51,561 nucleotides of DNA, from contig CAMDKY010000009.1 in NCBI GenBank assembly GCA_945901245.1, forward strand, positions 1 to 51,561, read 5' to 3'. Positions 1 to 11,161 of the stretch are shown piece by piece. The notes under the pieces are model-generated. The model saw only the letters and a list, made by a program, of their open reading frames with translations, made no database searches and was not told where the DNA came from. The first letter of the stretch is position 1. Every line of letters begins with the position of its first letter. The stretch comes from Polynucleobacter meluiroseus. Its GTDB lineage: Bacteria; Pseudomonadota; Gammaproteobacteria; Burkholderiales; Burkholderiaceae. Position numbers and translations under genes: made by a program.

Positions 1-1032
1 CCCCAATTAATGGAAAGCCTCTACATTGGTTGTGTTTCGCACAGCATGCGTTTTTTCCCCAAGGGCGAGATCGATGCCCATGCCTTTAAAGAAGCGGAGC
101 TCACTGCTCGCCGCGAAATTCAAGTCATTGCCGAGCCCTTTGTCAAGCAGGGCTGGAAGCAAGCCGTCGGCTCGTCTGGTACCGCCCGTGCTTTAGCCGA
201 CATCATTGCTGCAATGGGGTATGGCGATGCCCCAAAAGGCTTCATTACCAAAGCCGCTCTAAAAGCAATGAAGCACGATTTATTGCGTTTTGAGAGCACC
301 AGTCAAATACCCATACCGGGCTTGAAGGATGATCGACGCGTGGTATGGCCAGGTGGTCTTGCTATTATGCTGGCGGTGTTTGAAGAGCTGGAGATTGAAT
401 TAATGGAAGTCACCGATGCCGCGCTGCGGGTTGGGGTCTTGTATGACTTACTGGGTCGATCCCAACACCACGACATGCGCTTTGTCACAGTAGAGCAGTT
501 TATGGGCCGGTACTCGGTGGATCGGCTGCAAGCCAAACGCGTGGGGAATTTAGCGGCTAGTTTTTTATCGCAATTACCAAGTCGCGACACAGAAGCTAGA
601 ACAAATAATCTGATTTTATTGGAGTGGGCTGCGAATTTGCATGAGATTGGTCTATCGATTTCCCACAACAGTTACCACAAGCATTCAGCCTACATTGCCG
701 GTAATGCCGACATGCCAGGATTCTCAAAAAACGACCAATTTCGTTTAGCGACCCTGCTAGTCGGTCACACCGGCAAACTCGGGAAGCTGGCGAATAATGC
801 CGAATTTCTGGATTGGCGCATGCTGCTTGCCTTACGCTTGGCGCAATTACTATGCCGTGGTCGAACCGATGCCCATTTGCCAGAGGTGAGCGTGAGCGAG
901 TCAGGCGCCGGATTTACGATTCAGATTGCAAAAGCGTGGCTTGATAAGCACCCTTTGACCGAATTTAGTTTGCGCAAAGAGGCCGCTGAATGGGACCGCA
1001 TTGGTCGGCCCTACACCATCAAATTGACTTAA
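1..1032 (+). CDS. ppx: Exopolyphosphatase Ppx/GppA family, C-terminal part (5' end outside window)
   Basis: Hydrolyses terminal phosphates of polyphosphate (or pppGpp in the GppA branch) in the cytoplasm. The frame is open to base 1 and the visible 343 codons begin inside the actin-like phosphatase domain. The motif ESLYIGCVSHSMRFFPKG is typical of the second ASKHA subdomain, and GSSGTARALADII follows. The C-terminal third carries an HD-like helical region (WAANLHEIGLSISHNSYHKH, then LVGHTGKLGKL), as in full-length Ppx of about 500 residues. Roughly 150 N-terminal residues, with the nucleotide-binding loop, must lie upstream. Ppx is preferred over GppA because of the long HD-like C-terminus, but the two cannot be fully separated here. 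It works opposite the PPK2 encoded at 34363. Confidence 0.9.
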   Translation, partial: PQLMESLYIGCVSHSMRFFPKGEIDAHAFKEAELTARREIQVIAEPFVKQGWKQAVGSSGTARALADIIAAMGYGDAPKGFITKAALKAMKHDLLRFESTSQIPIPGLKDDRRVVWPGGLAIMLAVFEELEIELMEVTDAALRVGVLYDLLGRSQHHDMRFVTVEQFMGRYSVDRLQAKRVGNLAASFLSQLPSRDTEARTNNLILLEWAANLHEIGLSISHNSYHKHSAYIAGNADMPGFSKNDQFRLATLLVGHTGKLGKLANNAEFLDWRMLLALRLAQLLCRGRTDAHLPEVSVSESGAGFTIQIAKAWLDKHPLTEFSLRKEAAEWDRIGRPYTIKLT

Positions 1033-1046
1033 AACAGGCGGCTCGT

Positions 1047-1970
1047 TTATTGACCTAAAAAATGCTTTGCGTAGCGGGGATTGATTTCGGAGAGGCGCAA
1101 CATGGTCAAGAGGTCGGCCGTATTAAAGTCAGGATCCCAAGCGGGCGCACTGCATATTTTTGCCCCTAATTTGAGATAGCCTTTAATTAGCGGAGGCGCT
1201 TCGACATCGAGGCCACCATTGAGGCGATTGAGTGGTAGCGGTACCTTCGGAAAGCCGTGGTTTTCGATGGGCGCAATTTGATCTGCGCTCAGTCCGTTGT
1301 ATAGGCTAGCAGCGAAGTGTCCACCATCGGTCATCGGGATGCTGGCGCAACCGAGCATGATTTCATAATTGTTTTTCAGCATGTATTCAGCCAGACCGCT
1401 CCAGAGTGCCATGATAACGGCGCCCGAACGGTAGTCTTGATGCACGCAGGAACGGCCCACTTCCACCATTTTGGGGCGTAAGTGATCCAGGCGTGTTAGA
1501 TCAAATTCGGAATCGGAATAGAGCTTGCCGATCTCTTGTGCCTTATGGGGTGGTAACACCCGATAGGTGCCGACTACCCGCAGGGTATCTTGATCACGAA
1601 TGATCAGGTGGTCACAGTAGGCATCAAACTCATCCACATCCAGCCCTTGAGTATGGCTAGGGAGGGCAGCGCCCATCTCTTCCGCAAATACTTTAAAGCG
1701 CAAGCGCTGCGCTTCTTGAATCTCACCCGCATCTTTAGCCCAAGATACCTGTAGTGCAGGGCGCTTTGATTTGATGATGGGACGTGCCACCTCGGGCGTG
1801 GACCGCAACTCAGTTCGAGTCCGCTGCGCAAATGCTTTACCAAATAAACGCTTGGCCATTTTTTTCGATAAGAGCTTTTTGAGAGGCAGTAATTTCTGCT
1901 TGCGGCTGACGGTAGTCACGCCTTTGAAGAACACGTCGAATGGGGCAAATGGATTTGGCATATCGGACAT
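1047..1970 (-). CDS. olsB: Ornithine lipid synthesis N-acyltransferase OlsB (GNAT fold)
   Basis: OlsB transfers a 3-hydroxyacyl chain from ACP to the alpha-amino group of ornithine, giving lyso-ornithine lipid, the first step to a phosphorus-free membrane lipid. The 307-residue protein has a basic N-terminal extension (about 1-70), then a GNAT-type acyltransferase domain with RLRFKVFAEEMGA, a central RVVGTYRVLPP strand and EVGRSCVHQDYRSGAVI, all typical of the OlsB (hemolysin-like) family. Last gene of the leftward plcP-agt-dgkA-olsB run; 41 bp separate it from dgkA, and a Pho-box-like promoter sits there. The lyso-lipid acyltransferase olsA is nearby at 4417, supporting ornithine lipid rather than another GNAT role. 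Substrate assignment is by family and neighbourhood. Confidence 0.85.
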   Translation of the reverse strand: MSDMPNPFAPFDVFFKGVTTVSRKQKLLPLKKLLSKKMAKRLFGKAFAQRTRTELRSTPEVARPIIKSKRPALQVSWAKDAGEIQEAQRLRFKVFAEEMGAALPSHTQGLDVDEFDAYCDHLIIRDQDTLRVVGTYRVLPPHKAQEIGKLYSDSEFDLTRLDHLRPKMVEVGRSCVHQDYRSGAVIMALWSGLAEYMLKNNYEIMLGCASIPMTDGGHFAASLYNGLSADQIAPIENHGFPKVPLPLNRLNGGLDVEAPPLIKGYLKLGAKICSAPAWDPDFNTADLLTMLRLSEINPRYAKHFLGQ

Positions 1971-1997
1971 AAAAGGAACCTTGTAGTAGTAAACCCG

Positions 1998-2031
1998 AGT
2001 CTAGATGGGGTTTATGACAGTTTCATGAAAA
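1998..2031 (-). promoter_or_regulatory. Candidate Pho box plus -10 in front of olsB
   Basis: Read on the minus strand, 2031-2014 is TTTTCATGAAACTGTCAT, matching 14 of 18 positions of the enterobacterial Pho-box consensus CTGTCATAAATCTGTCAT, with half-sites 11 bp apart. Ten bases further (2003-1998) is TAGACT, a fair -10; a 10-nt spacer is the classical PhoB-activated layout. The site overlaps the last codons of dgkA, so olsB may be transcribed separately. Matching was by eye; binding is inferred. Confidence 0.5.
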
Positions 2032-2419
2032 GAGGCAAGCAAACGCTAAGCCACAAAATAAAGGTAATGAGTAGGGCCAACATCACCGCAGCCGAGCCAA
2101 AATCCTTGGCGCGTTTGGAGAGGTCATGGTGCTCAAAGGAAATTCGATCAATCGCCGCTTCCACGCTCGAATTGAGCAATTCAATCGCCATAACGAGCAC
2201 CAGAGAAGAAATTAATACGGCTTTTTCAAACAGCGTTACGGGCAAGAGTAACGCCACTGGGGTCAGTAATATAAAAAGGGTTAGCTCTTGCCGAAACGCA
2301 CTTTCTTCTTTGAACGCAAATACCAGCCCATGCCATGAGTTTTTTGCCGCATGCCAAGCGCGAACGAGGCCGCGATTGCCCTTGTGCGGATTTTGGTCAA
2401 TGTGGTAAGTATTTTTCAA
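2012..2419 (-). CDS. dgkA: Diacylglycerol kinase DgkA
   Basis: Small integral membrane kinase that phosphorylates diacylglycerol with ATP to phosphatidic acid in the inner membrane. The 135-residue product has three hydrophobic segments (about 49-64, 66-85 and 110-130) and the family signature ELLNSSVEAAIDR, holding the catalytic Glu and Asn. Length fits the 120-135 residues of proteobacterial DgkA. It lies 22 bp downstream of the glycosyltransferase and upstream of olsB in the same direction. In this setting it could recycle diacylglycerol released by PlcP, competing with the glycosyltransferase for it; that branch-point role is inference. Confidence 0.93.
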   Translation of the reverse strand: MKNTYHIDQNPHKGNRGLVRAWHAAKNSWHGLVFAFKEESAFRQELTLFILLTPVALLLPVTLFEKAVLISSLVLVMAIELLNSSVEAAIDRISFEHHDLSKRAKDFGSAAVMLALLITFILWLSVCLPLFMKLS

Positions 2420-2441
2420 TGGGTTAATTGACTATATCTAC

Positions 2442-3470
2442 TCACGCCAGCGCGGTGCGGTGAATTGCTGGCGTGGCTACTGGCTTTAAATGCCGGGCAA
2501 ACTGTTCTGTCGAAGCCCGCCATGAGAAGCGCTCGGCATGGGCTCTAGCCACCTCGCGGGGAATCTTGAGGGCAGCTAAGCAGGCCGTACGTAAATCCTT
2601 ATCCATGGCGCCGGCTGGCGAGTCTCCCAAGACATCGATCGGGCCTGTCACGGGGTAAGCAGCCACTGGTGTACCGCAAGCCATGGCTTCTAGCAAGACA
2701 AGACCAAAGGTATCGGTTTTGCTCGGGAAAACAAAGACATCGGCCGCGGCATAGACCTTGGCTAACTCGGGCTGGTTTAAAACACCCAAATAATTAACAT
2801 TGGGGTATTGCTGTTTGATTTTGGCCATGGCGGGACCGTCACCCACCACCCACTTTGACCCTGGCAAGTCAATTTCCAAAAAGGCATTGATGTTTTTTTC
2901 AACTGCAACCCGGCCAACGTACAAAAAGATCGGGTGTGCTGAGTTGAGGACCTTAGACTCTTGCATCTGAAATACCTCAGTATCCACGCCGCGTGACCAG
3001 AGCACCACATTCGTAAAGCCGAATTTTTCTAGATCGTTTTTGACGACGATGGTGGGCGCCATGACGGCCATCGAGGGGCCATGAAACCAGCGCAAGAAGG
3101 CATAGGTCCACGAGATCGGAATACCGGTCCTTGCCTGAACGTACTCTGGAAAGCGCGTATGGTAAGCGGTAGAGAAGGGCAGGCGATTGCGCACAGCATA
3201 GGCTCTGGCAGATAAACCCAAGGGGCCTTCGGTGGCAATGTGAATCGCATCGGGCTCAAAATCCTTGATTTTGCGCGCTACGCCTTTCCCGGGAAATAGT
3301 GACAGAGAGATATCTGGATAGGTAGGGCAAGGAATGGTTTTGAATTGATTGGGCGTAATCATCTCGATCTCATGCCCCATTAATTTCAGTTCATGGCAAG
3401 TTTGCTTTAAGGTACGAACAACTCCATTGACTTGGGGTTCCCAGGCGTCGGTTACGATCATTATTTTCAT
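2442..3470 (-). CDS. agt: GT4-family glycosyltransferase, probable diacylglycerol glycosyltransferase Agt
   Basis: Family 4 glycosyltransferase with GT-B fold, 342 residues. The N-terminal acceptor domain starts with DAWEPQVNGVVRT, usual for bacterial lipid or mannose GT4 enzymes; the C-terminal donor domain shows LYVGRVAVEKNI and the nucleotide-sugar signature EAMACGTPVAAYPVTGP. The start codon overlaps the plcP stop by 4 bp, so translation is probably coupled. In alphaproteobacteria and marine heterotrophs the plcP-agt pair converts phospholipid to glycosyl-diacylglycerol under phosphate stress. The acceptor (diacylglycerol) is inferred from that pairing; sequence alone would also allow a mannosyl- or other glycolipid role. 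Confidence 0.78.
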   Translation of the reverse strand: MKIMIVTDAWEPQVNGVVRTLKQTCHELKLMGHEIEMITPNQFKTIPCPTYPDISLSLFPGKGVARKIKDFEPDAIHIATEGPLGLSARAYAVRNRLPFSTAYHTRFPEYVQARTGIPISWTYAFLRWFHGPSMAVMAPTIVVKNDLEKFGFTNVVLWSRGVDTEVFQMQESKVLNSAHPIFLYVGRVAVEKNINAFLEIDLPGSKWVVGDGPAMAKIKQQYPNVNYLGVLNQPELAKVYAAADVFVFPSKTDTFGLVLLEAMACGTPVAAYPVTGPIDVLGDSPAGAMDKDLRTACLAALKIPREVARAHAERFSWRASTEQFARHLKPVATPAIHRTALA

Positions 3471-4288
3471 GCTAAGGCCTCTTCACGTGATTTATTAATA
3501 GCGACTTCCATATGGAACTCTTCTATGTTGGCGATACTTGGGCTTGGGTCGCCCAGAATGGTGTTCCAAAACACCAGTTTGAGTTCACCTTCGGTGGTCT
3601 CAACGAGGGCGCTCAGGCTCTCAACCCAATCGCCATCGTTGCAATAAATGAGTCCATCGATTTCCCGAATTTCGGCTTTGTGAATATGCCCACAAACGAC
3701 GCCATCGCAATTGCGCATGCGGGCTTCGCGCGCCATGATGTGCTCAAAATCAGCAATGTAGCTCACGGCATTCTTGACTTGGTGCTTGAGGTATTGCGAT
3801 AGTGACCAGTACTGCAAGCCCATTTTGATGCGAATCAAATTGAAATAGCGATTCATGTACAAAATCAGGGAATATAGGGTGTCGCCGACATAGGCGAGCC
3901 ATTTGGCGTACTGCATCACGCCATCAAATAAATCGCCATGGGTAACCCAGAGCTTTTTGCCGTCCTTCGTGGTATGGATAATCTCTTCAACCACCTGAAT
4001 CTCGCCAAAGGACGTGCCGATGTATTGGCGGGCGCTTTCATCGTGATTACCTGGGATGAAGTACACGCTAGCGCCTTTACGGGCTTTGCGCAGTAATTTT
4101 TGGACTACGTCATTGTGCGTTTGCGGCCAATAGAATGATTTCTTTAGGCGCCATCCGTCAATAATGTCACCAACCAAGTAGTAGGTATCGGCTTCGTTGT
4201 GCTTTAGGAAATCGAGGAGGTAGTTTGCCTGGCAGCCTGTAGTACCCAGGTGCACGTCTGAAATCCAGATGGCTCGGTAGTGCGTCAT
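3467..4288 (-). CDS. plcP: PlcP-type phospholipase C (calcineurin-like metallophosphoesterase)
   Basis: Predicted to cleave phospholipid headgroups, releasing diacylglycerol, at the cytoplasmic membrane. The 273-residue protein has the full metallophosphoesterase metal set: D11/H13 (SDVHLG), D41 (VGDIIDGW), N81-H82-D83 (GNHDE), H117 (THGD) and H201/H203 (CGHIHKA). FYWPQTHNDVVQKLLRKA and LQYWSLSQYLKHQVKNAVSY are characteristic of the PlcP group (Sinorhizobium SMc00171 type), which older annotation calls UDP-2,3-diacylglucosamine hydrolase-like. First gene of the leftward run, with a phased repeat at 4320-4352 in front. LpxH is the main alternative; the plcP-agt order argues against it. Confidence 0.85.
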   Translation of the reverse strand: MTHYRAIWISDVHLGTTGCQANYLLDFLKHNEADTYYLVGDIIDGWRLKKSFYWPQTHNDVVQKLLRKARKGASVYFIPGNHDESARQYIGTSFGEIQVVEEIIHTTKDGKKLWVTHGDLFDGVMQYAKWLAYVGDTLYSLILYMNRYFNLIRIKMGLQYWSLSQYLKHQVKNAVSYIADFEHIMAREARMRNCDGVVCGHIHKAEIREIDGLIYCNDGDWVESLSALVETTEGELKLVFWNTILGDPSPSIANIEEFHMEVAINKSREEALA

Positions 4289-4319
4289 TGAAGAGTATTA
4301 AGCCATGCGAGTGTGTAGG

Positions 4320-4368
4320 CTTCATGACAATTTCATGTCATTTTTATGACTTACTAGCTTAGTATTGT
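4320..4368. promoter_or_regulatory. 11-bp phased repeat between plcP and olsA, candidate Pho box
   Basis: On the plus strand CATGAC (4323), CATGTC (4334) and TATGAC (4345) recur exactly every 11 bp, separated by A/T-only spacers, the geometry of a Pho box with three half-sites. On the plcP strand two overlapping 18-mers each match 13 of 18 consensus positions (for example ATGACATGAAATTGTCAT). Read towards olsA, the repeat is followed after 10 nt by TATTGT (4363-4368), a weak -10. It is the only gap between the two divergent genes and could serve both. PhoB binding is inferred. Confidence 0.55.
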
Positions 4369-4416
4369 TATTGCATTCTGTATAACAAAGAGCCTTCTAC
4401 ATCAACCATTATTAAT

Positions 4417-5154
4417 ATGAATCCAAGCCGCATTTTCACCATATTGCAAATCATGGCGCATGTTTTTAAAGGATGCTTCATTTTGCTGCTGCTATTTCCT
4501 TGGTTCAATGTAGAGCAGCGGCATCGATCGATTCGTAAGTGGTGCAAGCAGCTGCTGGCTTTGTTTCAGATGCGCCTGAGTGTGGTTGGGGAGAAGCACC
4601 TGATGGACGCCCATTACTTATTAGCAGCCAATCACATCTCGTGGATTGATATTCATGTGATCAATGCCTTTAAACCCCATTATTTTGTCGCTAAATCCGA
4701 AGTAGCGAGTTGGCCTATTTTTGGCTGGATGGCTAAACAGCTCGGTACGCTCTTTATTGAGCGCGGTAAGTCCAATAGCATTCGCAATATGGTGCAGGAA
4801 GTAGCTGAGCAACTGAAGCAAAAAGCCATTTGCATCTTTCCAGAAGGCACCTCGACCGATGGCAAGCAGGTAGCACCGTTTAAATCGAACTTATTCGAAG
4901 CAGCCATTGTGGCCAATGCGCCGGTATATGCCCTGGCGATTCAGTACTTTGATGTGCATACTGGCCAAAAAACCACGGCACCCGCTTTTATTGGTGAGAT
5001 GGGTTTATTGGATTCGATCTGGAATCTGATCTGCAGCCCACCCATTTGTGCCCAGATCAGCATTAGTGAAAAACTACCTGCACTTACAGAAAGAAAGGCC
5101 CTGGCCGAACTGAGCCAGAGCCTGATTGCAGCGCAACTGTGCGACAGCCGTTAG
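4417..5154 (+). CDS. olsA: Lyso-ornithine lipid O-acyltransferase OlsA (PlsC family)
   Basis: Membrane acyltransferase predicted to add the second, ester-linked acyl chain to lyso-ornithine lipid. The 245-residue protein has an N-terminal membrane segment (about 10-30), the catalytic NHISWID (H73, D78), the glycerol/acceptor region LGTLFIERG and the FPEGTS motif (141-146) of PlsC-type enzymes. It is transcribed away from plcP and its 3' end overlaps the convergent TonB receptor gene by 4 bp. The presence of olsB 2.4 kb away supports OlsA over a second lysophosphatidate acyltransferase; the two are hard to tell apart by motif alone. Confidence 0.8.
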   Translation: MNPSRIFTILQIMAHVFKGCFILLLLFPWFNVEQRHRSIRKWCKQLLALFQMRLSVVGEKHLMDAHYLLAANHISWIDIHVINAFKPHYFVAKSEVASWPIFGWMAKQLGTLFIERGKSNSIRNMVQEVAEQLKQKAICIFPEGTSTDGKQVAPFKSNLFEAAIVANAPVYALAIQYFDVHTGQKTTAPAFIGEMGLLDSIWNLICSPPICAQISISEKLPALTERKALAELSQSLIAAQLCDSR

Positions 5155-7310
5155 AAGGCGGCGCGTACCCCCACCATGAGGCTACGCCCCGGTTGCGGTG
5201 CATACAAACGCACTGCCATGGGGGTGGTAGCAAAACGGATTTGCTCGTTGAGTAAGTTACGCAAATTAACGTAGCCCGTCCAACTGATCTTGTTGACCTT
5301 CTCGGTATACGACAAACCGGCGTTCAGTAAGTTGTAGCTGGGGGTAGGGCCCACTTCCCACGAGGCCAATCGATTTTGCTCAAAGCTATAGGTGTAACTG
5401 GCATTTGCTAACCACTTGTTTTGCTGATGGGCTAGCTGTAGTCCTACCCGAGGCGCTGGTTGCAAAGGCAAATTGCCGCCCGCATCAAAAGTCCCTTGGG
5501 ATGCATCCGCAAACAAACGGGCGCCGCTGCCAAATTGATTCCAGTTGTAGGTCAGTTCGGCTTCGGCTCCTTTGATTGTGGCTGCGGCTTGCTGGGCAAC
5601 GACCACGCTAAAGTCTTCATCTCCAGCACTTTCTCCAGAAATATAGTTTCCGAAAATATAGTTATTAAACTTATTTACATAGATACTTGCCTTACCACGC
5701 ACTTTACCCAACACCTTTTGTGCTGTTAGTTCAAGATTGTGAGAAGTCTCTTTTGATAAATTAGAGTTCCCAACCACAAAGGTTGCGGTAGATTCATGTA
5801 TACCGTAGGCATAGAGCTCTTGTGCGTCTGGTGCTCGTTGAGATACCGTATATGCAGCTCCCAGGCCATAACCATTGACTAAGTTCCACAAGCCACCAGC
5901 AGAGTAGGATGTTAGATTGAAATTACGGTTTACAGCCTGCGGGTTTACGGGGCCGTCTGAGCTTAGAGCCCCATCTTTTTTAAAGTCGATGCCATTGCCA
6001 CCTACTCCAGCTTCATATGGAAAAATTGTTGCGCTATTGGGGTTTTGACTTACGTTGTCATAGCGTAAACCCAAGTTAGCTTGCAGAGGCCCCCAGCGTC
6101 CTTCCTCAATCCAGAAGAGGGCATTGGAATTGGTTTTGGTCGATGGAACAATCGCATAATTACCACTATCTAACTCCGTTGCCTCGAGCGATGCGCGAGT
6201 TACTTGAGCGCCAATATTGCCTTTCCATCCCATGAAATTCTTATGGGATAAATCGAGGCGCGCTTCATTAGCAATGTTTTTCCAAAGGGCTGCTGCCACG
6301 CCATCTGGCCCAAATTCCGTATGGTTGTAATTGCTATTGGCCGCACTGAACTTTAAGGAAGAAAAGCCCTCAAATGGATCGCGCGTTTGGTGCTGAAAGT
6401 CATAGCGATTTTGTGATTGGTTAATCGCACCGCCCTCGGGTGTGGGTATGCCGTAGTTATTGTTTAGACGCTCAATTGATATACCGGTGTACCCCGACTT
6501 ACCGATATATGATGCTCCTAACCCCAAATTGTTTTGATTGCTAAAAGAATTGGGTAATTTACCGGTGTAGTTGGTTGCTTCACCGCCTTCCGGAGGAACA
6601 GTCCAGCCACCCGCAGGCTGACCCTGAGACTGGGTTGAGCTACCTGGAAAGCTGTAGTTCTGTGCATTATTGATGGCCGTGTCGACGTGCACGGCAACTG
6701 AGCCAAAGGCGGCATCGACAATGCCTGAGGCTGCTCGGCCATTGTTGACGGTTTCGTAGCTGGTATTGACTGCCCCGGTTGCGTGCTCCGGTAGGTTAGT
6801 CAAGATACGATCATTAATCACATTCACCAAACCACCGCTAGACCCTGAACCATACTTTAGAGCTGCAGCCCCGCGCAGAATTTCAATCTGACGAGCATTT
6901 TGCAATGGGGTTGCTACGGCATGATCAGCTGAGATGCTGGATACATCGCCCACTGAAAGGCCGTTTTGCAAAATCTGCACTCGTGCACCCTCCAGGCCCC
7001 GAATAACCGGGCGAGAAGATCCTACCCCATAACCGGTCTGGGATACTCCCAATTCATTACCAATAGTGGCTCCTAAGGTAGTGCCGAGCTTATCCAAGAG
7101 TTCATTGCCTTGCAGAATTTTGGTTGGCGTGAGGATGCTGAGATTACTTTCTTGTGATCCAGTTGCTTCAATTTGTAGATTGGGATTGCTGCTGCTTTGG
7201 GCATAGGCAATCACAGAAAAAGACACAGTCAATGTGGTGGTCAGGCTAACTGATTTCAGTAAGCCAAAGGCATTTCGCTTTGCTAAAAGCGATCGAGAAT
7301 TCGTCTTCAT
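5151..7310 (-). CDS. TonB-dependent outer-membrane receptor, ZnuD-like
   Basis: Outer-membrane gated channel, 719 residues. The start at 7310 is preferred over an upstream ATG at 7352 because GGAG lies six bases before it and a signal peptide follows (cleavage near AYA-QSS). The plug domain holds TPTKILQGNELLDKL, RPVIRGLEGARVQILQNG and QIEILRGAAALKYGSGSSGG; the barrel ends in the aromatic terminus GVRAAF. Plug wording (SADHAVATPLQ, then GGLVNVIND) resembles the ZnuD/PA0781 zinc-receptor group rather than siderophore receptors. The His-rich gene upstream also points to metal. Substrate is inferred; no long His-rich barrel loop was found. Confidence 0.82.
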   Translation of the reverse strand: MKTNSRSLLAKRNAFGLLKSVSLTTTLTVSFSVIAYAQSSSNPNLQIEATGSQESNLSILTPTKILQGNELLDKLGTTLGATIGNELGVSQTGYGVGSSRPVIRGLEGARVQILQNGLSVGDVSSISADHAVATPLQNARQIEILRGAAALKYGSGSSGGLVNVINDRILTNLPEHATGAVNTSYETVNNGRAASGIVDAAFGSVAVHVDTAINNAQNYSFPGSSTQSQGQPAGGWTVPPEGGEATNYTGKLPNSFSNQNNLGLGASYIGKSGYTGISIERLNNNYGIPTPEGGAINQSQNRYDFQHQTRDPFEGFSSLKFSAANSNYNHTEFGPDGVAAALWKNIANEARLDLSHKNFMGWKGNIGAQVTRASLEATELDSGNYAIVPSTKTNSNALFWIEEGRWGPLQANLGLRYDNVSQNPNSATIFPYEAGVGGNGIDFKKDGALSSDGPVNPQAVNRNFNLTSYSAGGLWNLVNGYGLGAAYTVSQRAPDAQELYAYGIHESTATFVVGNSNLSKETSHNLELTAQKVLGKVRGKASIYVNKFNNYIFGNYISGESAGDEDFSVVVAQQAAATIKGAEAELTYNWNQFGSGARLFADASQGTFDAGGNLPLQPAPRVGLQLAHQQNKWLANASYTYSFEQNRLASWEVGPTPSYNLLNAGLSYTEKVNKISWTGYVNLRNLLNEQIRFATTPMAVRLYAPQPGRSLMVGVRAAF

Positions 7311-7325
7311 AAAAAGCTCCAATTG

Positions 7326-7374
7326 CGCCACGGCATCGCAGTGGCGAAACAATACATGGCAGACAAGAGCTGCC
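7326..7374. other. Two small stem-loops between the His-rich gene and the receptor gene
   Basis: CGCCAC (7326-7331) pairs with GTGGCG (7341-7346), and GGCAG (7358-7362) pairs with CTGCC (7370-7374). Both lie in the 74-bp gap ahead of the receptor start. No T-run follows, so they are not clear terminators; they might stabilise or attenuate the message. The gap is too short for a cobalamin riboswitch. Confidence 0.25.
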
Positions 7375-7384
7375 GCTTAGGGGT

Positions 7385-7798
7385 TTACAACTGGAGGGAT
7401 TGCGGCGGAGCGCGGGATTGGTAGTGGCTTAAAACTGCGCCAGTATTAAAAACGGCGCTATAGATAATCGGTTCGGTTGCCAGTGCTTGAACCGCAGTGA
7501 TGGTTGTGCCGGCACTTGAAACAAAGCCAGCTAAGGTGAGTGCATCAAACAGTAAACAATTGGCATTAATGTGGTCGGCATGAGGTGCCTCTGCATGGTG
7601 ATGCGCATCGCAGTCGTCATGGTTGGCTAAGTCGAGGGGGGCATTAAACCCGGCAAGGGATGGCTGCCCGGTATGGGGGTGGGCAATGCTGTGGGCATAA
7701 CCCAGCCAATGGGTGCCCAGCAGGCTTAGCGCGAGGAAGGCGACCGCTAGACAGGTCCGAGCGGATCGCTGGATTGGTGTCTTTAAATAGGCCTTCAT
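7385..7798 (-). CDS. His-rich exported protein, DUF2946-like
   Basis: Small protein of 137 residues with an N-terminal membrane/signal segment (CLAVAFLALSLLGTHWLG) followed by a His-rich stretch (HDDCDAHHHAEAPHADH) and the ending YQSRAPP, which recalls DUF2946 proteins. Histidines and cysteines suggest periplasmic metal binding. The ATG at 7798 was taken; a GTG at 7804 gives two more residues, and neither has a clear ribosome site. It lies 74 bp upstream of the TonB receptor in the same direction, a pairing common for zinc or copper receptors. The function is unknown; metal delivery or sensing is inference. Confidence 0.65.
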   Translation of the reverse strand: MKAYLKTPIQRSARTCLAVAFLALSLLGTHWLGYAHSIAHPHTGQPSLAGFNAPLDLANHDDCDAHHHAEAPHADHINANCLLFDALTLAGFVSSAGTTITAVQALATEPIIYSAVFNTGAVLSHYQSRAPPQSLQL

Positions 7799-7859
7799 AT
7801 GCACGAATGGTACAGGAAATGCCTAGCGGACCCAATACTGTGTAAAATATCGATTCCGT

Positions 7860-7936
7860 CGGAGTGTAGCGCAGCCTGGTAGCGCACCTGCTTTGGGAGC
7901 AGGGGGTCCAAGGTTCGAATCCTTGTACTCCGACCA
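7860..7936 (+). tRNA. tRNA-Pro (TGG)
   Basis: Seventy-seven bases with encoded CCA. The acceptor stem CGGAGTG pairs with TACTCCG (one G-T), the anticodon arm CCTGC-TTTGGGA-GCAGG carries TGG, and the T loop is TTCGAAT. The antisense strand gives a familiar false reading frame through the tRNA. Confidence 0.96.
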
Positions 7937-7989
7937 CCTTTTATTACCTTATCTTCCCTTGATCTACTCTGCCCAGAGCAAGATCTACC

Positions 7990-8835
7990 TCAAAAACGCC
8001 ACGTTACTCCTGCCTCAGAACGTAAGGAATTAACGCCCGATCCCGAGAACACGGCCCCAAAATCAGCGGCACTGCGCATAATCGATACGCCTAGGTCAAC
8101 ATCTGGAGTGATCGAATAAATTGCCGCCACCATACCGTAGTCTGAAAATCGGTTGGCGTTGAGAACAATATTGGTGCCCACTCCAAAATCCAGCGCTAAG
8201 CGCCAGCGTGAATTCACTACCCATACGGGTGCAATGGAAAATGAATAAGCTTTGGTACGCAAGGGCTCCATACTTCCGTTGACTTGGTAATTGGTGTTGT
8301 AGGGATTGCTGGCATAACTTACGTTGCTGTGCACATGAATTTGATCCCAATAGTAGGAGCTTATGAAATTCAGTTCGTAATTGGTTTTGGCCATACCAAT
8401 ACCAACGGCCTGTTGGCTTGTTGATGCGGGCAGGGTAACGGTCGGTTTGACGGCAAATGCCCAGCCTTGCTCGCCATCGCCCCAAAAGCGCCATTTGAGT
8501 CCCAGCACGTAGTTCGAAAGGGGAGAGTAGTTGCCCTTAGGGGAGGCATAGTAGGTCGTTGCAAACGAAACTTCTGTTGTTTCGCTAAGGCCTCGCGTAT
8601 AGGTAAAAGGTGCAGCCGTTGCTCGCCCAAGACCCCTAAATTCTTCGCCGTTGCTATTAATAACGGAAATGTCTTCAGTTGCCTTGTTGTTTAAAACATA
8701 AATGTACTGCTCAATCTGATTAACGTTGCGGCCAATGGTCGCCGCATCATCGGTATTGAGGGGCTCGAAGGCCTGTGTGGGCAGCGCAACTGCAACGGCC
8801 AGAATGGAGAAAAGTAAACGAAGGGGGAAGGTCAT
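7990..8835 (-). CDS. Outer-membrane beta-barrel protein, phenol-degradation MetA-like family
   Basis: Exported 281-residue protein: signal peptide (LRLLFSILAVAVALPTQA-FEP), then alternating aromatic beta-strands (WAFAVKPTVTLPA, YELNFISSYYWDQIHVH, WRLALDFGVGTNIVL) and a terminal SEAGVTWRF ending in Phe, the usual barrel-assembly signal. EPLNTDDAATIGRNVNQIEQY after cleavage is typical of proteins often called MetA-pathway or 'transporter' family (PF13557). The substrate is not known. It stands alone between tRNA-Pro and the permease, with no catabolic genes beside it. Confidence 0.65.
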   Translation of the reverse strand: MTFPLRLLFSILAVAVALPTQAFEPLNTDDAATIGRNVNQIEQYIYVLNNKATEDISVINSNGEEFRGLGRATAAPFTYTRGLSETTEVSFATTYYASPKGNYSPLSNYVLGLKWRFWGDGEQGWAFAVKPTVTLPASTSQQAVGIGMAKTNYELNFISSYYWDQIHVHSNVSYASNPYNTNYQVNGSMEPLRTKAYSFSIAPVWVVNSRWRLALDFGVGTNIVLNANRFSDYGMVAAIYSITPDVDLGVSIMRSAADFGAVFSGSGVNSLRSEAGVTWRF

Positions 8836-8926
8836 AAAGAAGTCAGGCGATAGCGCATGAATACACGACTGTATTTCAATTGAGTGACACTTCTAAGTCA
8901 TGCAGGCGCAGGACAGGCAAATCAAT

Positions 8927-10282
8927 TTATTTACGAAGAAGTTCTTTTTTAGCACGTAAGTAGAGCAGGGCCACGACACCGACCAACATGACGTAGAGGG
9001 AGATCGTGACGGCGCCCTTACTGTGGGCATAGGCAAAGCTAGAATAGGCTAAGTACGCACACGAGGCGCAAAACACCATGGGTGTGAGAGGGTAGAGGGG
9101 TACGCTAAACTCACGCTTGATATGGGGGTGCTTAAATCGCAGAATAAATACCGAGATCCCAACCAATAATAAGAAACTCCAAAAAACTGGGGCGGTAAAT
9201 TCCACCATGGCCTCAAAGCCATCCGACTGCAAAGCCCCAAAGCAAACCAGCGCGACGCAGATAATGCCTTGCACTAAATAAGCCAGACTCGGAGAGCCGC
9301 GCTTGGCTTCCCAGCGCCCCATGAAACGCAGGCCATACCAATCTTCACCCATCGCAAAATTGGTGCGCGCACCGACAATCATGGTGGCATTAATGCTGGT
9401 GAGTGCAGCAATAGCGACAAAAAGACCGAGGAGTTTTTCACCTACGGGGCCAAACGCTAAACCCAGCAAATCGGCAGGTGCTGCTTTACTGCTGGCAAGC
9501 TGTTGCATGCCAAGGCCGCTAATTAATGCCCAATTCACCAAGAGATAAATAATGGTGATGAGCAGCAGACTAAAGACAATGACGTACACCACTGTCTTGC
9601 TACCACCCTTGACTTCGGCGGAAATATAAGCGGATTCATTCCAGCCGCCAAAGGTCAGTAGTACGAAGACCATGGCTAAGCCAAGTAAACCTAAGGGTGG
9701 GGTACTTGAGAAAAAGGGAGCATGCTCCACTACAGGCAGGGGCGCGCCCATTAAGCCAAAGCCCGCCACAATAATGGCCAGCAGGCCAGCCACTTCCAAA
9801 ATGGTGAGCAGGGTTTGGACTTTGGCCGATGCATGAATGCCAATCAGATTAACCAGGGTCAAGCCAATCACAATCAGCAAAGCCCAAATAACAGAAGAGT
9901 AAGCACCTAAAGGCAAGACCTTAGTCATGTAGTCGCCAAACACAAAAGCGAGCAAGGCAATCGATCCCGTATTAATGACCGTCGCTTTGGCCCAGCCATA
10001 TAAAAACGAGGCATTTTTGCCATAGGCCTTGAGTAAAAAGTGATAGTCGCCACCGGCATGGGGGTGGGTAGTAGCAAGCTCGGCATAGCAAAGGGCACCT
10101 GCCATTGAAATGACCGACCCAATAATCCAAACACTCATCATCCAGCCGATATCGCCGGTAATGCCGGCTACCATCGATGGTGTTTTAAAAATACCCGCAC
10201 CAATCACAATGCCAACAATGATGGCAATTGCGCCGGTGCGCGAGAGCAGGCGCTCCGGCACCGTATTGGCGGGGTTATTCAT
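8927..10282 (-). CDS. APC-superfamily amino acid permease (LAT/SteT-like)
   Basis: Inner-membrane amino acid transporter, 451 residues, about 12 hydrophobic helices. The first helix has the substrate-binding IVIGIVIGAGIFKTPS loop of APC carriers, and the sixth region FGGWNESAYISAEVKGG is typical of the basic/serine-threonine exchanger branch (SteT, YfnA, LAT). The protein ends with a basic cytoplasmic tail. It lies 36 bp downstream of an exported methyltransferase gene in the same direction, which may be an operon. The transported amino acid cannot be told from sequence. Confidence 0.85.
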   Translation of the reverse strand: MNNPANTVPERLLSRTGAIAIIVGIVIGAGIFKTPSMVAGITGDIGWMMSVWIIGSVISMAGALCYAELATTHPHAGGDYHFLLKAYGKNASFLYGWAKATVINTGSIALLAFVFGDYMTKVLPLGAYSSVIWALLIVIGLTLVNLIGIHASAKVQTLLTILEVAGLLAIIVAGFGLMGAPLPVVEHAPFFSSTPPLGLLGLAMVFVLLTFGGWNESAYISAEVKGGSKTVVYVIVFSLLLITIIYLLVNWALISGLGMQQLASSKAAPADLLGLAFGPVGEKLLGLFVAIAALTSINATMIVGARTNFAMGEDWYGLRFMGRWEAKRGSPSLAYLVQGIICVALVCFGALQSDGFEAMVEFTAPVFWSFLLLVGISVFILRFKHPHIKREFSVPLYPLTPMVFCASCAYLAYSSFAYAHSKGAVTISLYVMLVGVVALLYLRAKKELLRK

Positions 10283-10318
10283 GCTGAAGTGTGAAAGCGA
10301 GCGAAAGCAAGCAATTGC

Positions 10319-11161
10319 TTAACGGCGCACTCCAGTGAATTCATTCTGAAGGTAGCCGCCTTTATCGTCACCCTTTAAGGCATTGCCATTGATCGTGACT
10401 TGCGCCGTGCGGAAATTGCCATTGCGATCTTTGTAAGTAAATTCCAATTTAGCTCCCGTTAGTTTGGCATTGAGCAAGGGTTGGCTTTTACGGTCGATTA
10501 ACAAGCTGCCACCAATGCGCTGGTAATGCTGCGATAGGCTTAAGCTAGCTGGGCCTTGAGAATCGAAATTGCTCAGAGTCCATTCGCCCGCCACGTTGGC
10601 AGGCACAACCCAAAAATAGCCTTTGGCTGGACTATCAATTTCAGCATCGGCTTCCCAGTCACCCATGGTAAAGGCATGCGACACCACTCGGGTACCGGGT
10701 TTCATCTTAAGGATAGTAGGGCGCAGCTTCAGGTTGAGTTCTGGTAATAAATACATGGTGACGACCGTTGCCTTGGAAAAGTCTTCCTTAAAAATATCGC
10801 CCTGAATGATTTTGACTTGCTTTGATACGCCTGCGCGCTGTGCATTACGCTGACCCAAGGCTGCCATCTCAGGATTAAATTCAATACCGACTGCAGTTGC
10901 GCCGAATTCCCTTGCTGCTGCAATCGCAATTTTTCCGTCACCAGCACCCAGGTCATAAACCAAATCGGATGGACCGACTTTTGCAATTTTGAGCATATTC
11001 ATGACCAGCTCAGCGCTGGTGGGCACCCAAATAACATCCTTGCCTTCTTGGCCAACGCTGGGTTTGTACTTGTCGTCGCCACCTTCGGTTATGGCGTGCA
11101 CGCCAAAACTGATACTTAATAGTAAGGGGAGGGAAAGCAGTAGTTTTTGTACAGTCTTCAT
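10319..11161 (-). CDS. Exported class I SAM-dependent methyltransferase-like protein
   Basis: Protein of 280 residues with a clear signal peptide (LLLSLPLLLSISFGVHA) followed by a Rossmann methyltransferase domain: motif I VYDLGAGDGKIAIAA, then VGIEFNPEM and IIQGDIF, and MYLLPELNLKLRP. The C-terminal 80 residues (after about 200) form a beta-rich tail. SAM is cytosolic, so an exported methyltransferase fold is odd; either the N-terminus is a membrane anchor or the domain has another use. Such proteins recur in betaproteobacteria without known substrate. A similar exported protein is encoded at 28703, not closely related. Confidence 0.7.
   Translation of the reverse strand: MKTVQKLLLSLPLLLSISFGVHAITEGGDDKYKPSVGQEGKDVIWVPTSAELVMNMLKIAKVGPSDLVYDLGAGDGKIAIAAAREFGATAVGIEFNPEMAALGQRNAQRAGVSKQVKIIQGDIFKEDFSKATVVTMYLLPELNLKLRPTILKMKPGTRVVSHAFTMGDWEADAEIDSPAKGYFWVVPANVAGEWTLSNFDSQGPASLSLSQHYQRIGGSLLIDRKSQPLLNAKLTGAKLEFTYKDRNGNFRTAQVTINGNALKGDDKGGYLQNEFTGVRR

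What the first reader, a model, noticed from the sequence alone, without database searches (positions are those of the whole stretch)
1047..5154. A complete phosphorus-sparing lipid locus: PlcP, Agt, DgkA, OlsB and OlsA together
Five contiguous genes cover phospholipid breakdown, glycolipid formation and both steps of ornithine lipid synthesis. plcP-agt pairs and olsBA pairs are each known in other proteobacteria, but both branches with dgkA around one divergent control region is a compact arrangement I do not recall as described. It suggests the cell can swap phospholipids for two types of phosphorus-free lipid at once.
Basis: partly seen in the sequence, partly recalled or inferred. Interest (0 to 1): 0.75.

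Follow-up and report, generated by a model that had tools for sequence, protein, structure and literature searches.

The report
Phosphorus-sparing membrane lipid gene island
A freshwater bacterium carries, side by side, the predicted genes for breaking down phosphorus-containing membrane lipids and for making two kinds of phosphorus-free replacement; each part is known elsewhere, but the compact grouping beside the phosphate-starvation genes looks like a new arrangement.

Summary
In detail: all five genes lie where stated, in a genome of the Polynucleobacter group. The genome has a separate LpxH and a second PF01553 acyltransferase, probably PlsC, so the window's phosphoesterase and acyltransferase are probably not the housekeeping enzymes. 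The order ppx> <olsB<dgkA<agt<plcP olsA> is kept in 59 of 72 congener plcP loci. In one complete congener it continues a glmM-pstSCAB-phoUBR> <ppk ppx> block: the unit is a Pho island. An 11-bp repeat array resembling PhoB sites faces plcP, and the window's best Pho-box match precedes olsB; box controls are mixed. In other Burkholderiaceae the modules stand apart: dgkA-agt-plcP in 14 of 19 loci; olsB near ppx, without the other four genes, in 55 of 56 loci. Ca. Methylopumilus has a similar cluster; shared descent is unresolved. PlcP, DagK, OlsA and OlsB are already reported as a Pho-dependent phosphate-stress response in Pseudomonas putida (PMC5082522, passages), so function is expected; the physical arrangement is the new part. 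Lipid products are untested.

The parts
1..1032 (+). ppx/gppA exopolyphosphatase, 5' part cut by the contig end; convergent neighbour of olsB and link to the pst-pho-ppk block in congeners
   Evidence: PF02541 and PF21447; the full gene in the congener locus L080 matches Ppx/GppA models
1047..1970 (-). olsB, predicted ornithine N-acyltransferase (first step of ornithine lipid)
   Evidence: PF13444 133.6 bits, best NCBIfam model OlsB at 174 bits; only PF13444 match in the genome
2014..2031 (-). Pho-box-like site before olsB (TTTTCATGAAACTGTCAT), overlapping the 3' end of dgkA
   Evidence: 12 of 14 consensus bases, best site of the 51.6-kb window on both strands; a site of at least 9 of 14 at this slot in 41 of 69 olsB upstream regions against 0 to 11 of 69 in four control slots
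2012..2419 (-). dgkA, diacylglycerol kinase
   Evidence: PF01219 109 bits; motif ELLNSSVEAAID present
2442..3470 (-). agt, GT4-family glycosyltransferase, predicted to glycosylate diacylglycerol
   Evidence: Glyco_transf_4 and Glycos_transf_1; overlaps plcP by 4 bp; next to plcP in 17 of 19 other loci of the family
3467..4288 (-). plcP, predicted intracellular phospholipase C of the LpxH-like metallophosphoesterases
   Evidence: metal motifs SDVH, GDIID, GNHD, HGD, GHIH; separate LpxH in the genome; 49.8% identity over 90% to a Sinorhizobium meliloti gene next to an AHL synthase and a LuxR regulator
4313..4352 (-). four-unit 11-bp repeat array (AAGTCAT/ATGACAT/TTGTCAT/CCTACAC), probable PhoB binding region reading towards plcP
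   Evidence: 46.3 bits with a matrix from 57 congener sites, next best place in the window -1.7; ends 24 bp before the plcP ATG in 55 of the 57 training sites
4417..5154 (+). olsA, predicted lyso-ornithine-lipid O-acyltransferase, divergent from plcP
   Evidence: PF01553; best NCBIfam models are OlsA; motifs NHISWID and FPEGT; 29% identity to the genome's only other PF01553 protein

Best explanation
A phosphate-starvation (Pho) regulated membrane-lipid replacement locus. When phosphate is short, PhoB binds the repeat array at 4313-4352 and drives plcP-agt-dgkA, and probably olsB by read-through, while a second box at 2014-2031 gives olsB its own input (inferred from sequence). PlcP splits phospholipids to diacylglycerol and a phosphorylated head group; Agt turns the diacylglycerol into a phosphorus-free glycolipid; OlsB and OlsA make ornithine lipid from ornithine and acyl-ACP. 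DgkA probably acts as a valve that returns surplus diacylglycerol to phosphatidic acid, so that a minimum of phospholipid is kept. Shown here: the genes, their order, their conservation, the paralogue test, the array. Inferred: enzyme activities, PhoB binding, the role of DgkA.
For: Gene families and coordinates. Same order in 59 of 72 congener loci. Continuous with glmM-pstSCAB-phoUBR> <ppk ppx> in the complete congener G010. Own genome has PstS and PhoB above cut-off and separate LpxH and a second acyltransferase. Array and olsB site; on the plcP strand 55 of 62 regions hold a site of at least 11 of 14, on the olsA strand 1 of 62. Of eight congeners with absent or odd plcP, four lack both plcP and olsB and three hold both, with plcP in pieces. 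Agt next to PlcP makes MGDG and GADG in SAR11 and the PlcP, DagK, OlsA, OlsB set is Pho-dependent in P. putida (PMC4796936 section 13; PMC5082522 passages).
Against: No expression or lipid data. OlsB, OlsA and PlcP fall below the NCBIfam equivalog cut-offs. The glycosyltransferase has no lipid-specific match above cut-off. The pstS promoter of the same genome scores only 11 of 14, tied with a second place in the same contig. A reversed-sequence control of the plcP regions still gives 26 of 62 at 11 of 14. In other Burkholderiaceae consensus boxes of at least 10 of 14 stand before plcP in only 4 of 16 loci (control 1) and before olsB in 3 of 56 (control 0; one of the 3 is a mis-sliced region). 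Two promoter-like sites found where 5.9 were expected, neither at the arrays.
Confidence: 0.8

Rival explanations
1. The five genes are chance or housekeeping neighbours: the phosphoesterase is LpxH, the acyltransferase is PlsC, the glycosyltransferase belongs to envelope sugar synthesis, and there is no common phosphate control.
For: All three families have housekeeping members; public plasmid records name the PlcP homologue UDP-2,3-diacylglucosamine diphosphatase in 20 of 25 listed rows.
Against: A separate LpxH (213 bits, cut-off 190; window protein 39 bits) with GNRD where the window protein has GNHD, and a separate PF01553 protein. Order kept in 59 of 72 loci; conserved array.
Confidence: 0.07
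2. The branch works, but the surrogate lipids differ from the names: OlsB acylates another amino acid (such as glutamine or glycine), or the GT4 enzyme glycosylates phosphatidylglycerol or another acceptor instead of diacylglycerol.
For: OlsB scores at half its curated cut-off; the best NCBIfam model for the glycosyltransferase is N-acetylglucosaminyl phosphatidylglycerol synthase at 85.6 bits, cut-off 480. Glutamine lipids are reported in Rhodobacteraceae (PMC6298996, listing only).
Against: OlsB models lead clearly over GlsB (174 against 23 bits); plcP-agt pairing is the known diacylglycerol glycosyltransferase context (PMC4796936 section 13).
Confidence: 0.2
3. The locus makes these lipids constitutively, for envelope charge or stress rather than for phosphorus saving; the boxes are weak or decayed.
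For: Burkholderia sensu stricto makes ornithine lipid constitutively in rich medium (PMC7814305 section 16); consensus boxes are scarce before olsB and plcP in other Burkholderiaceae.
Against: Conserved array at a fixed distance from plcP in 55 of 57 training loci and continuity with the Pho block in a complete congener.
Confidence: 0.15

Closest known systems
plcP-agt lipid remodelling operons (SAR11 HTCC7211, Erythrobacter, Pseudomonas aeruginosa, Methylosinus trichosporium)
   Same: plcP beside a glycosyltransferase, Pho boxes reported upstream (PMC4796936 section 13; PMC8528852 and PMC9239053 passages)
   Different: The window adds dgkA and both ornithine-lipid genes in the same cluster; in P. 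aeruginosa and M. trichosporium ornithine lipid is made too, but the ols genes are not described as part of the plcP operon in the passages seen
Pho-dependent lipid remodelling set of Pseudomonas putida BIRD-1 (PlcP, DagK, OlsA, OlsB)
   Same: Same four functions rise under phosphate depletion; the discussion calls them PHO-dependent (PMC5082522 passages)
   Different: There the genes are dispersed (olsA and olsB adjacent, plcP elsewhere by locus tag); no glycosyltransferase is named in that set
olsB of Burkholderia sensu lato
   Same: olsB near ppx with predicted Pho boxes in 21 of 43 genomes with a first matrix, and in all 43 with a second, data not shown (PMC7814305 section 16)
   Different: No plcP, agt, dgkA or olsA detected in the held flanks of 56 of 56 non-Polynucleobacter loci
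Ca. Methylopumilus cluster (L139-L141, L179)
   Same: olsA divergent from plcP, olsB after plcP, ppx and dgkA within about 9 kb
   Different: Agt is a more distant GT4, convergent to olsB where detected (missing in L140), a second GT4 and a 178-aa frame with PAP2-like motifs (my reading; no family match) lie between olsA and ppx in L139

Membership tests
PlcP (intracellular phospholipase C) | Distinct from the genome's LpxH | tested here: met
   Separate LpxH at G000:C3:32533-33207, 213 bits over cut-off 190; window protein 39 bits
PlcP (intracellular phospholipase C) | Metallophosphoesterase metal motifs with GNHD and not the GNRD of LpxH (the diagnostic value of the Arg is recalled) | tested here: met
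   GNHD in window; GNHD in 141 of 142 extracted PlcP proteins, GNRD in 1; GNRD in own LpxH
PlcP (intracellular phospholipase C) | Similarity to an experimentally characterised PlcP | tested here: inconclusive
   49.8% identity over 90% to a S. meliloti gene next to AHL synthase and LuxR genes; that this is SMc00171, the characterised PlcP, is recalled
PlcP (intracellular phospholipase C) | Hydrolyses phosphatidylcholine or other phospholipid to diacylglycerol | not testable with these tools
   needs enzyme assay
Agt (diacylglycerol glycosyltransferase) | GT4 fold family and operon with plcP | tested here: met
   Pfam GT4 domains, 4-bp overlap
Agt (diacylglycerol glycosyltransferase) | Uses diacylglycerol as acceptor | not testable with these tools
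   no lipid-specific model over cut-off
OlsB/OlsA ornithine lipid synthases | Match to curated equivalog models at cut-off | tested here: not met
   OlsB 174 of 350 bits, OlsA 131 of 300 bits; both are still the best models; the models were named after Rhodobacter and Brucella enzymes, so distance may explain it
OlsB/OlsA ornithine lipid synthases | OlsA distinct from PlsC, with HX4D and FPEGT motifs | tested here: met
   second PF01553 protein in the genome, 29% identical; motifs present
Pho regulon member | Pho box upstream | tested here: inconclusive
   conserved array and best window site, strand asymmetry 55 against 1 of 62, but reversed control 26 of 62 and few boxes in sister genera
Pho regulon member | PhoB-dependent induction under low phosphate | not testable with these tools
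   needs expression data

The most novel reading that the evidence does not exclude
Streamlined planktonic freshwater bacteria assembled a single inheritable phosphorus-saving island in which phosphate uptake, sensing, polyphosphate turnover and both lipid-replacement branches stand together, with DgkA as a built-in diacylglycerol valve; Polynucleobacter and Ca. Methylopumilus, of different families, share part of it by gene transfer (or built it twice), and it tends to be lost as a unit where phosphate is not limiting.
Probability: 0.3. Interest if true: 0.6.

Novelty: new variant of a known kind. Interest (0 to 1): 0.42.

Why it matters
Polynucleobacter is a widespread freshwater bacterioplankton genus (recalled), and lakes are often phosphorus-limited. 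A genus-wide phosphorus-sparing lipid island predicts that these cells change membrane composition, and so their phosphorus demand, as phosphate falls. The marine counterpart is established; for this genus the searches listed no such study in the held library. The island also gives a clean genetic target, and the conserved pairing of dgkA with plcP-agt raises a testable question on how cells avoid over-draining their phospholipids.

Tried and rejected
LpxH reading of the phosphoesterase: rejected on the separate LpxH and motif difference. PlsC reading of olsA: rejected on the second acyltransferase and model ranking. That 95 of 95 locus OlsA proteins (94 plus the window's) score higher with the window OlsA than with the own PlsC-like protein is weak, because they were picked by similarity to the window OlsA.

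Gene transfer between Polynucleobacter and Ca. Methylopumilus: the OlsB tree puts Methylopumilus inside Polynucleobacter (99/95 with nine rows) and the PlcP tree groups the two genera against 52 others (98/89, on a long branch). But the AU test does not reject Polynucleobacter as one clade (p 0.129), nor Methylopumilus with the other Methylophilaceae (p 0.094). A more distant genome of the same family group (G499) has the same olsA< plcP> olsB> layout with 48% PlcP. So left open.

Pho box as a proof by itself: rejected; the 14-base consensus gives 7 places of at least 11 in the window, and in Methylopumilus the reversed control equals the observed count (4 of 4 each). The 40-bp matrix measures orthologous conservation and does not find the pstS promoter, so it is no independent test of PhoB binding.

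Structure prediction was not run: it would show the fold, which the families already give, and not the substrate. The paper 10.1111/1462-2920.15451 on Burkholderia cenocepacia is not held.
Full report
What is there. The window is the contig G000:C9 of a 1.97-Mb draft genome. None of OlsB, OlsA or the phosphoesterase reaches an NCBIfam equivalog cut-off, though OlsB and OlsA models are the best for their proteins. plcP and agt overlap by 4 bp, agt and dgkA are 22 bp apart, dgkA and olsB 41 bp, so plcP-agt-dgkA-olsB can be one transcript (inferred). olsA is divergent. A ppx/gppA gene, cut by the contig end, converges on olsB.

Which organism. Contigs of several same-genus genomes have the length of named Polynucleobacter records (for example L182 and G203 C2, 1,664,474 bases; L184 and G044 C21, 279,388 bases; searches list or place them), so the genus is Polynucleobacter.

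Are the enzymes the housekeeping ones? No. The genome has another protein that passes the LpxH cut-off (213 of 190 bits, against 39 for the window protein). It carries GNRD where the window protein carries GNHD; GNHD is found in 141 of 142 extracted PlcP proteins and GNRD in one. There is a second PF01553 acyltransferase, 29% identical to the window's. PDB sequences give only LpxH as weak relatives (E 1e-4). Against named records the phosphoesterase is 49.8% identical over 90% to a Sinorhizobium meliloti gene beside an AHL synthase and a LuxR regulator; that this is the characterised plcP is recalled.

Spread in the genus. Of 81 genomes (own included), 76 have a match to PlcP at E 1e-3, but in three of these (G027, G042, G077) it is only the 22-25% LpxH-type match, which leaves 73. 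I fetched all 72 congener loci. Their make-up by tblastn: 59 have ppx> olsB< dgkA< agt< plcP< olsA> in full; one more has it with plcP and olsA in pieces (L073); seven lack dgkA between agt and olsB (in one of them, L071, dgkA stands beyond ppx); four are cut by contig ends (L063, L075, L076, L082); one is decayed (L074). A check of eight genomes with absent or odd plcP: four (G079, G027, G042, G037) lack both plcP and olsB; one (G077) has olsB but no detected plcP; three (G017, G023, G170) hold both, plcP in pieces. Loss as a unit is thus the commoner pattern, on small numbers.

The larger unit. In the complete congener G010 the genes run glmM, pstS, pstC, pstA, pstB, phoU, phoB, phoR (all +), ppk (-), ppx (+), then olsB to plcP (-) and olsA (+) (families). 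The lipid genes are the tail of a Pho island. In the window's genome pstS and phoB lie on short contigs of their own, so there the continuity is likely but not shown.

Control sequence. Between plcP and olsA stands an array of four units of 11 bp reading towards plcP (4313-4352). A matrix made from 57 congener regions, without the window and its four nearest relatives, scores 46.3 here and -1.7 at the next place in the window; the site ends 24 bp before the plcP ATG in 55 of the 57. Against the published consensus CTGTCATNNNNCTGTCAT (PMC8528852, passages), 55 of 62 plcP regions have a site of at least 11 of 14 on the plcP strand and 1 of 62 on the olsA strand. Against this: the same test on the merely reversed sequence gives 26 of 62, because the array is periodic. 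The best consensus site of the whole window, 12 of 14, lies before olsB at 2014-2031; six places score 11, one of them in the array. The olsB slot holds a site of at least 9 in 41 of 69 regions against 0 to 11 in control slots. The own pstS promoter has an 11 of 14 site (GTGTCATAAAGCCGTCAC), tied with another place in that contig. Ten of the 72 loci were left out of the plcP test because the alignments did not reach the gene starts, and one because no olsA was found. I judge PhoB control probable, not shown.

How it was assembled. In 19 other loci of the family, dgkA-agt-plcP stand together in 14 (one with a broken plcP), agt-plcP alone in three, plcP alone in two; no olsB, olsA or ppx was found within about 9 kb. 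In the named scan (80 loci kept of more), 56 loci outside Polynucleobacter have olsB with ppx in 55 (convergent in 52), and none of plcP, agt, dgkA or olsA within the held flank of up to 8 kb. In one Cupriavidus locus (L209) the frames beyond ppx read as ppk, phoR, phoB, phoU and pstB (my reading of the translations, not scanned). So both halves existed before; Polynucleobacter joined dgkA-agt-plcP to the olsB that already stood at the Pho block, and has olsA divergent from plcP.

Elsewhere in the order. Of 40 plcP loci chosen for diversity and three for visible olsB adjacency, agt of at least 50% identity adjoins plcP in most, and olsB lies in the held stretch in 12 (L139, L140, L141, L143, L151, L159, L163, L168, L169, L174, L176, L177). 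L174 has ppx> olsB< agt< plcP<, close to the window's order. The three Methylopumilus-type loci and the named Ca. M. universalis (L179) have olsA divergent from plcP, olsB behind plcP, and ppx and dgkA within about 9 kb. Four other genomes of that family group have an olsB-olsA pair and no PlcP-type match. Trees lean to kinship of Methylopumilus OlsB and PlcP with Polynucleobacter, but AU tests reject neither alternative (p 0.129; p 0.094).

What is known. plcP-agt operons with Pho boxes, and Agt making MGDG and GADG, are established (PMC4796936 section 13). P. aeruginosa and M. trichosporium make glycolipids and ornithine lipid under phosphate limitation (PMC8528852, PMC9239053, passages). 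Burkholderia olsB has predicted Pho boxes (PMC7814305 section 16). P. putida BIRD-1 raises PlcP, DagK, OlsA and OlsB under phosphate depletion, described as PHO-dependent (PMC5082522 passages; DagK is in the induced list and the discussion, but not in the list of proteins absent in the mutant that I saw). A search for papers with diacylglycerol kinase, PlcP, phosphate, bacteria and glycolipid together listed none, although PMC5082522 names both enzymes without the word glycolipid.

Mechanism and verdict. The best reading is a Pho-controlled switch from phospholipid to glycolipid and ornithine lipid, with DgkA as a valve for diacylglycerol. The protein set and its regulation are expected from known systems; the new part is the physical island, its genus-wide conservation, its assembly from two older modules and the similar cluster in another freshwater lineage. 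I rate it a new variant of a known kind, interest 0.42.

Noticed in passing
5151-7352 and 7385-7804: A TonB receptor whose best NCBIfam model is zinc-piracy ZnuD (347 bits, cut-off 950) stands next to a small His-rich predicted exported protein; possibly a zinc uptake pair. The receptor adjoins olsA in 36 of 72 congener loci.
   Followed up: no
7644-7937: The 97-aa ORF here is antisense to a tRNA-Pro gene at 7860-7936 and is probably not a gene.
   Followed up: yes
L073 (G023), L074 (G017), G170 C1:617-3264: Three single-contig congeners of 1.55 to 1.8 Mb have the locus in decay, with plcP in pieces; they could be host-associated strains, which I could not name.
   Followed up: partly
L139 5448-7196: Ca. 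Methylopumilus-type locus holds a second GT4 (best model alpha-monoglucosyldiacylglycerol synthase, 156 bits, cut-off 400) and a 178-aa frame with PAP2-like motifs between olsA and ppx.
   Followed up: no
L287 (Mitsuaria sp. 7 plasmid) 5908-10691: A plcP homologue on a plasmid is followed by ppk1 and ppx, another pairing of plcP with polyphosphate genes.
   Followed up: no
plasmid records: PlcP homologues are annotated as UDP-2,3-diacylglucosamine diphosphatase in 20 of 25 listed records, probably a widespread misnaming.
   Followed up: partly
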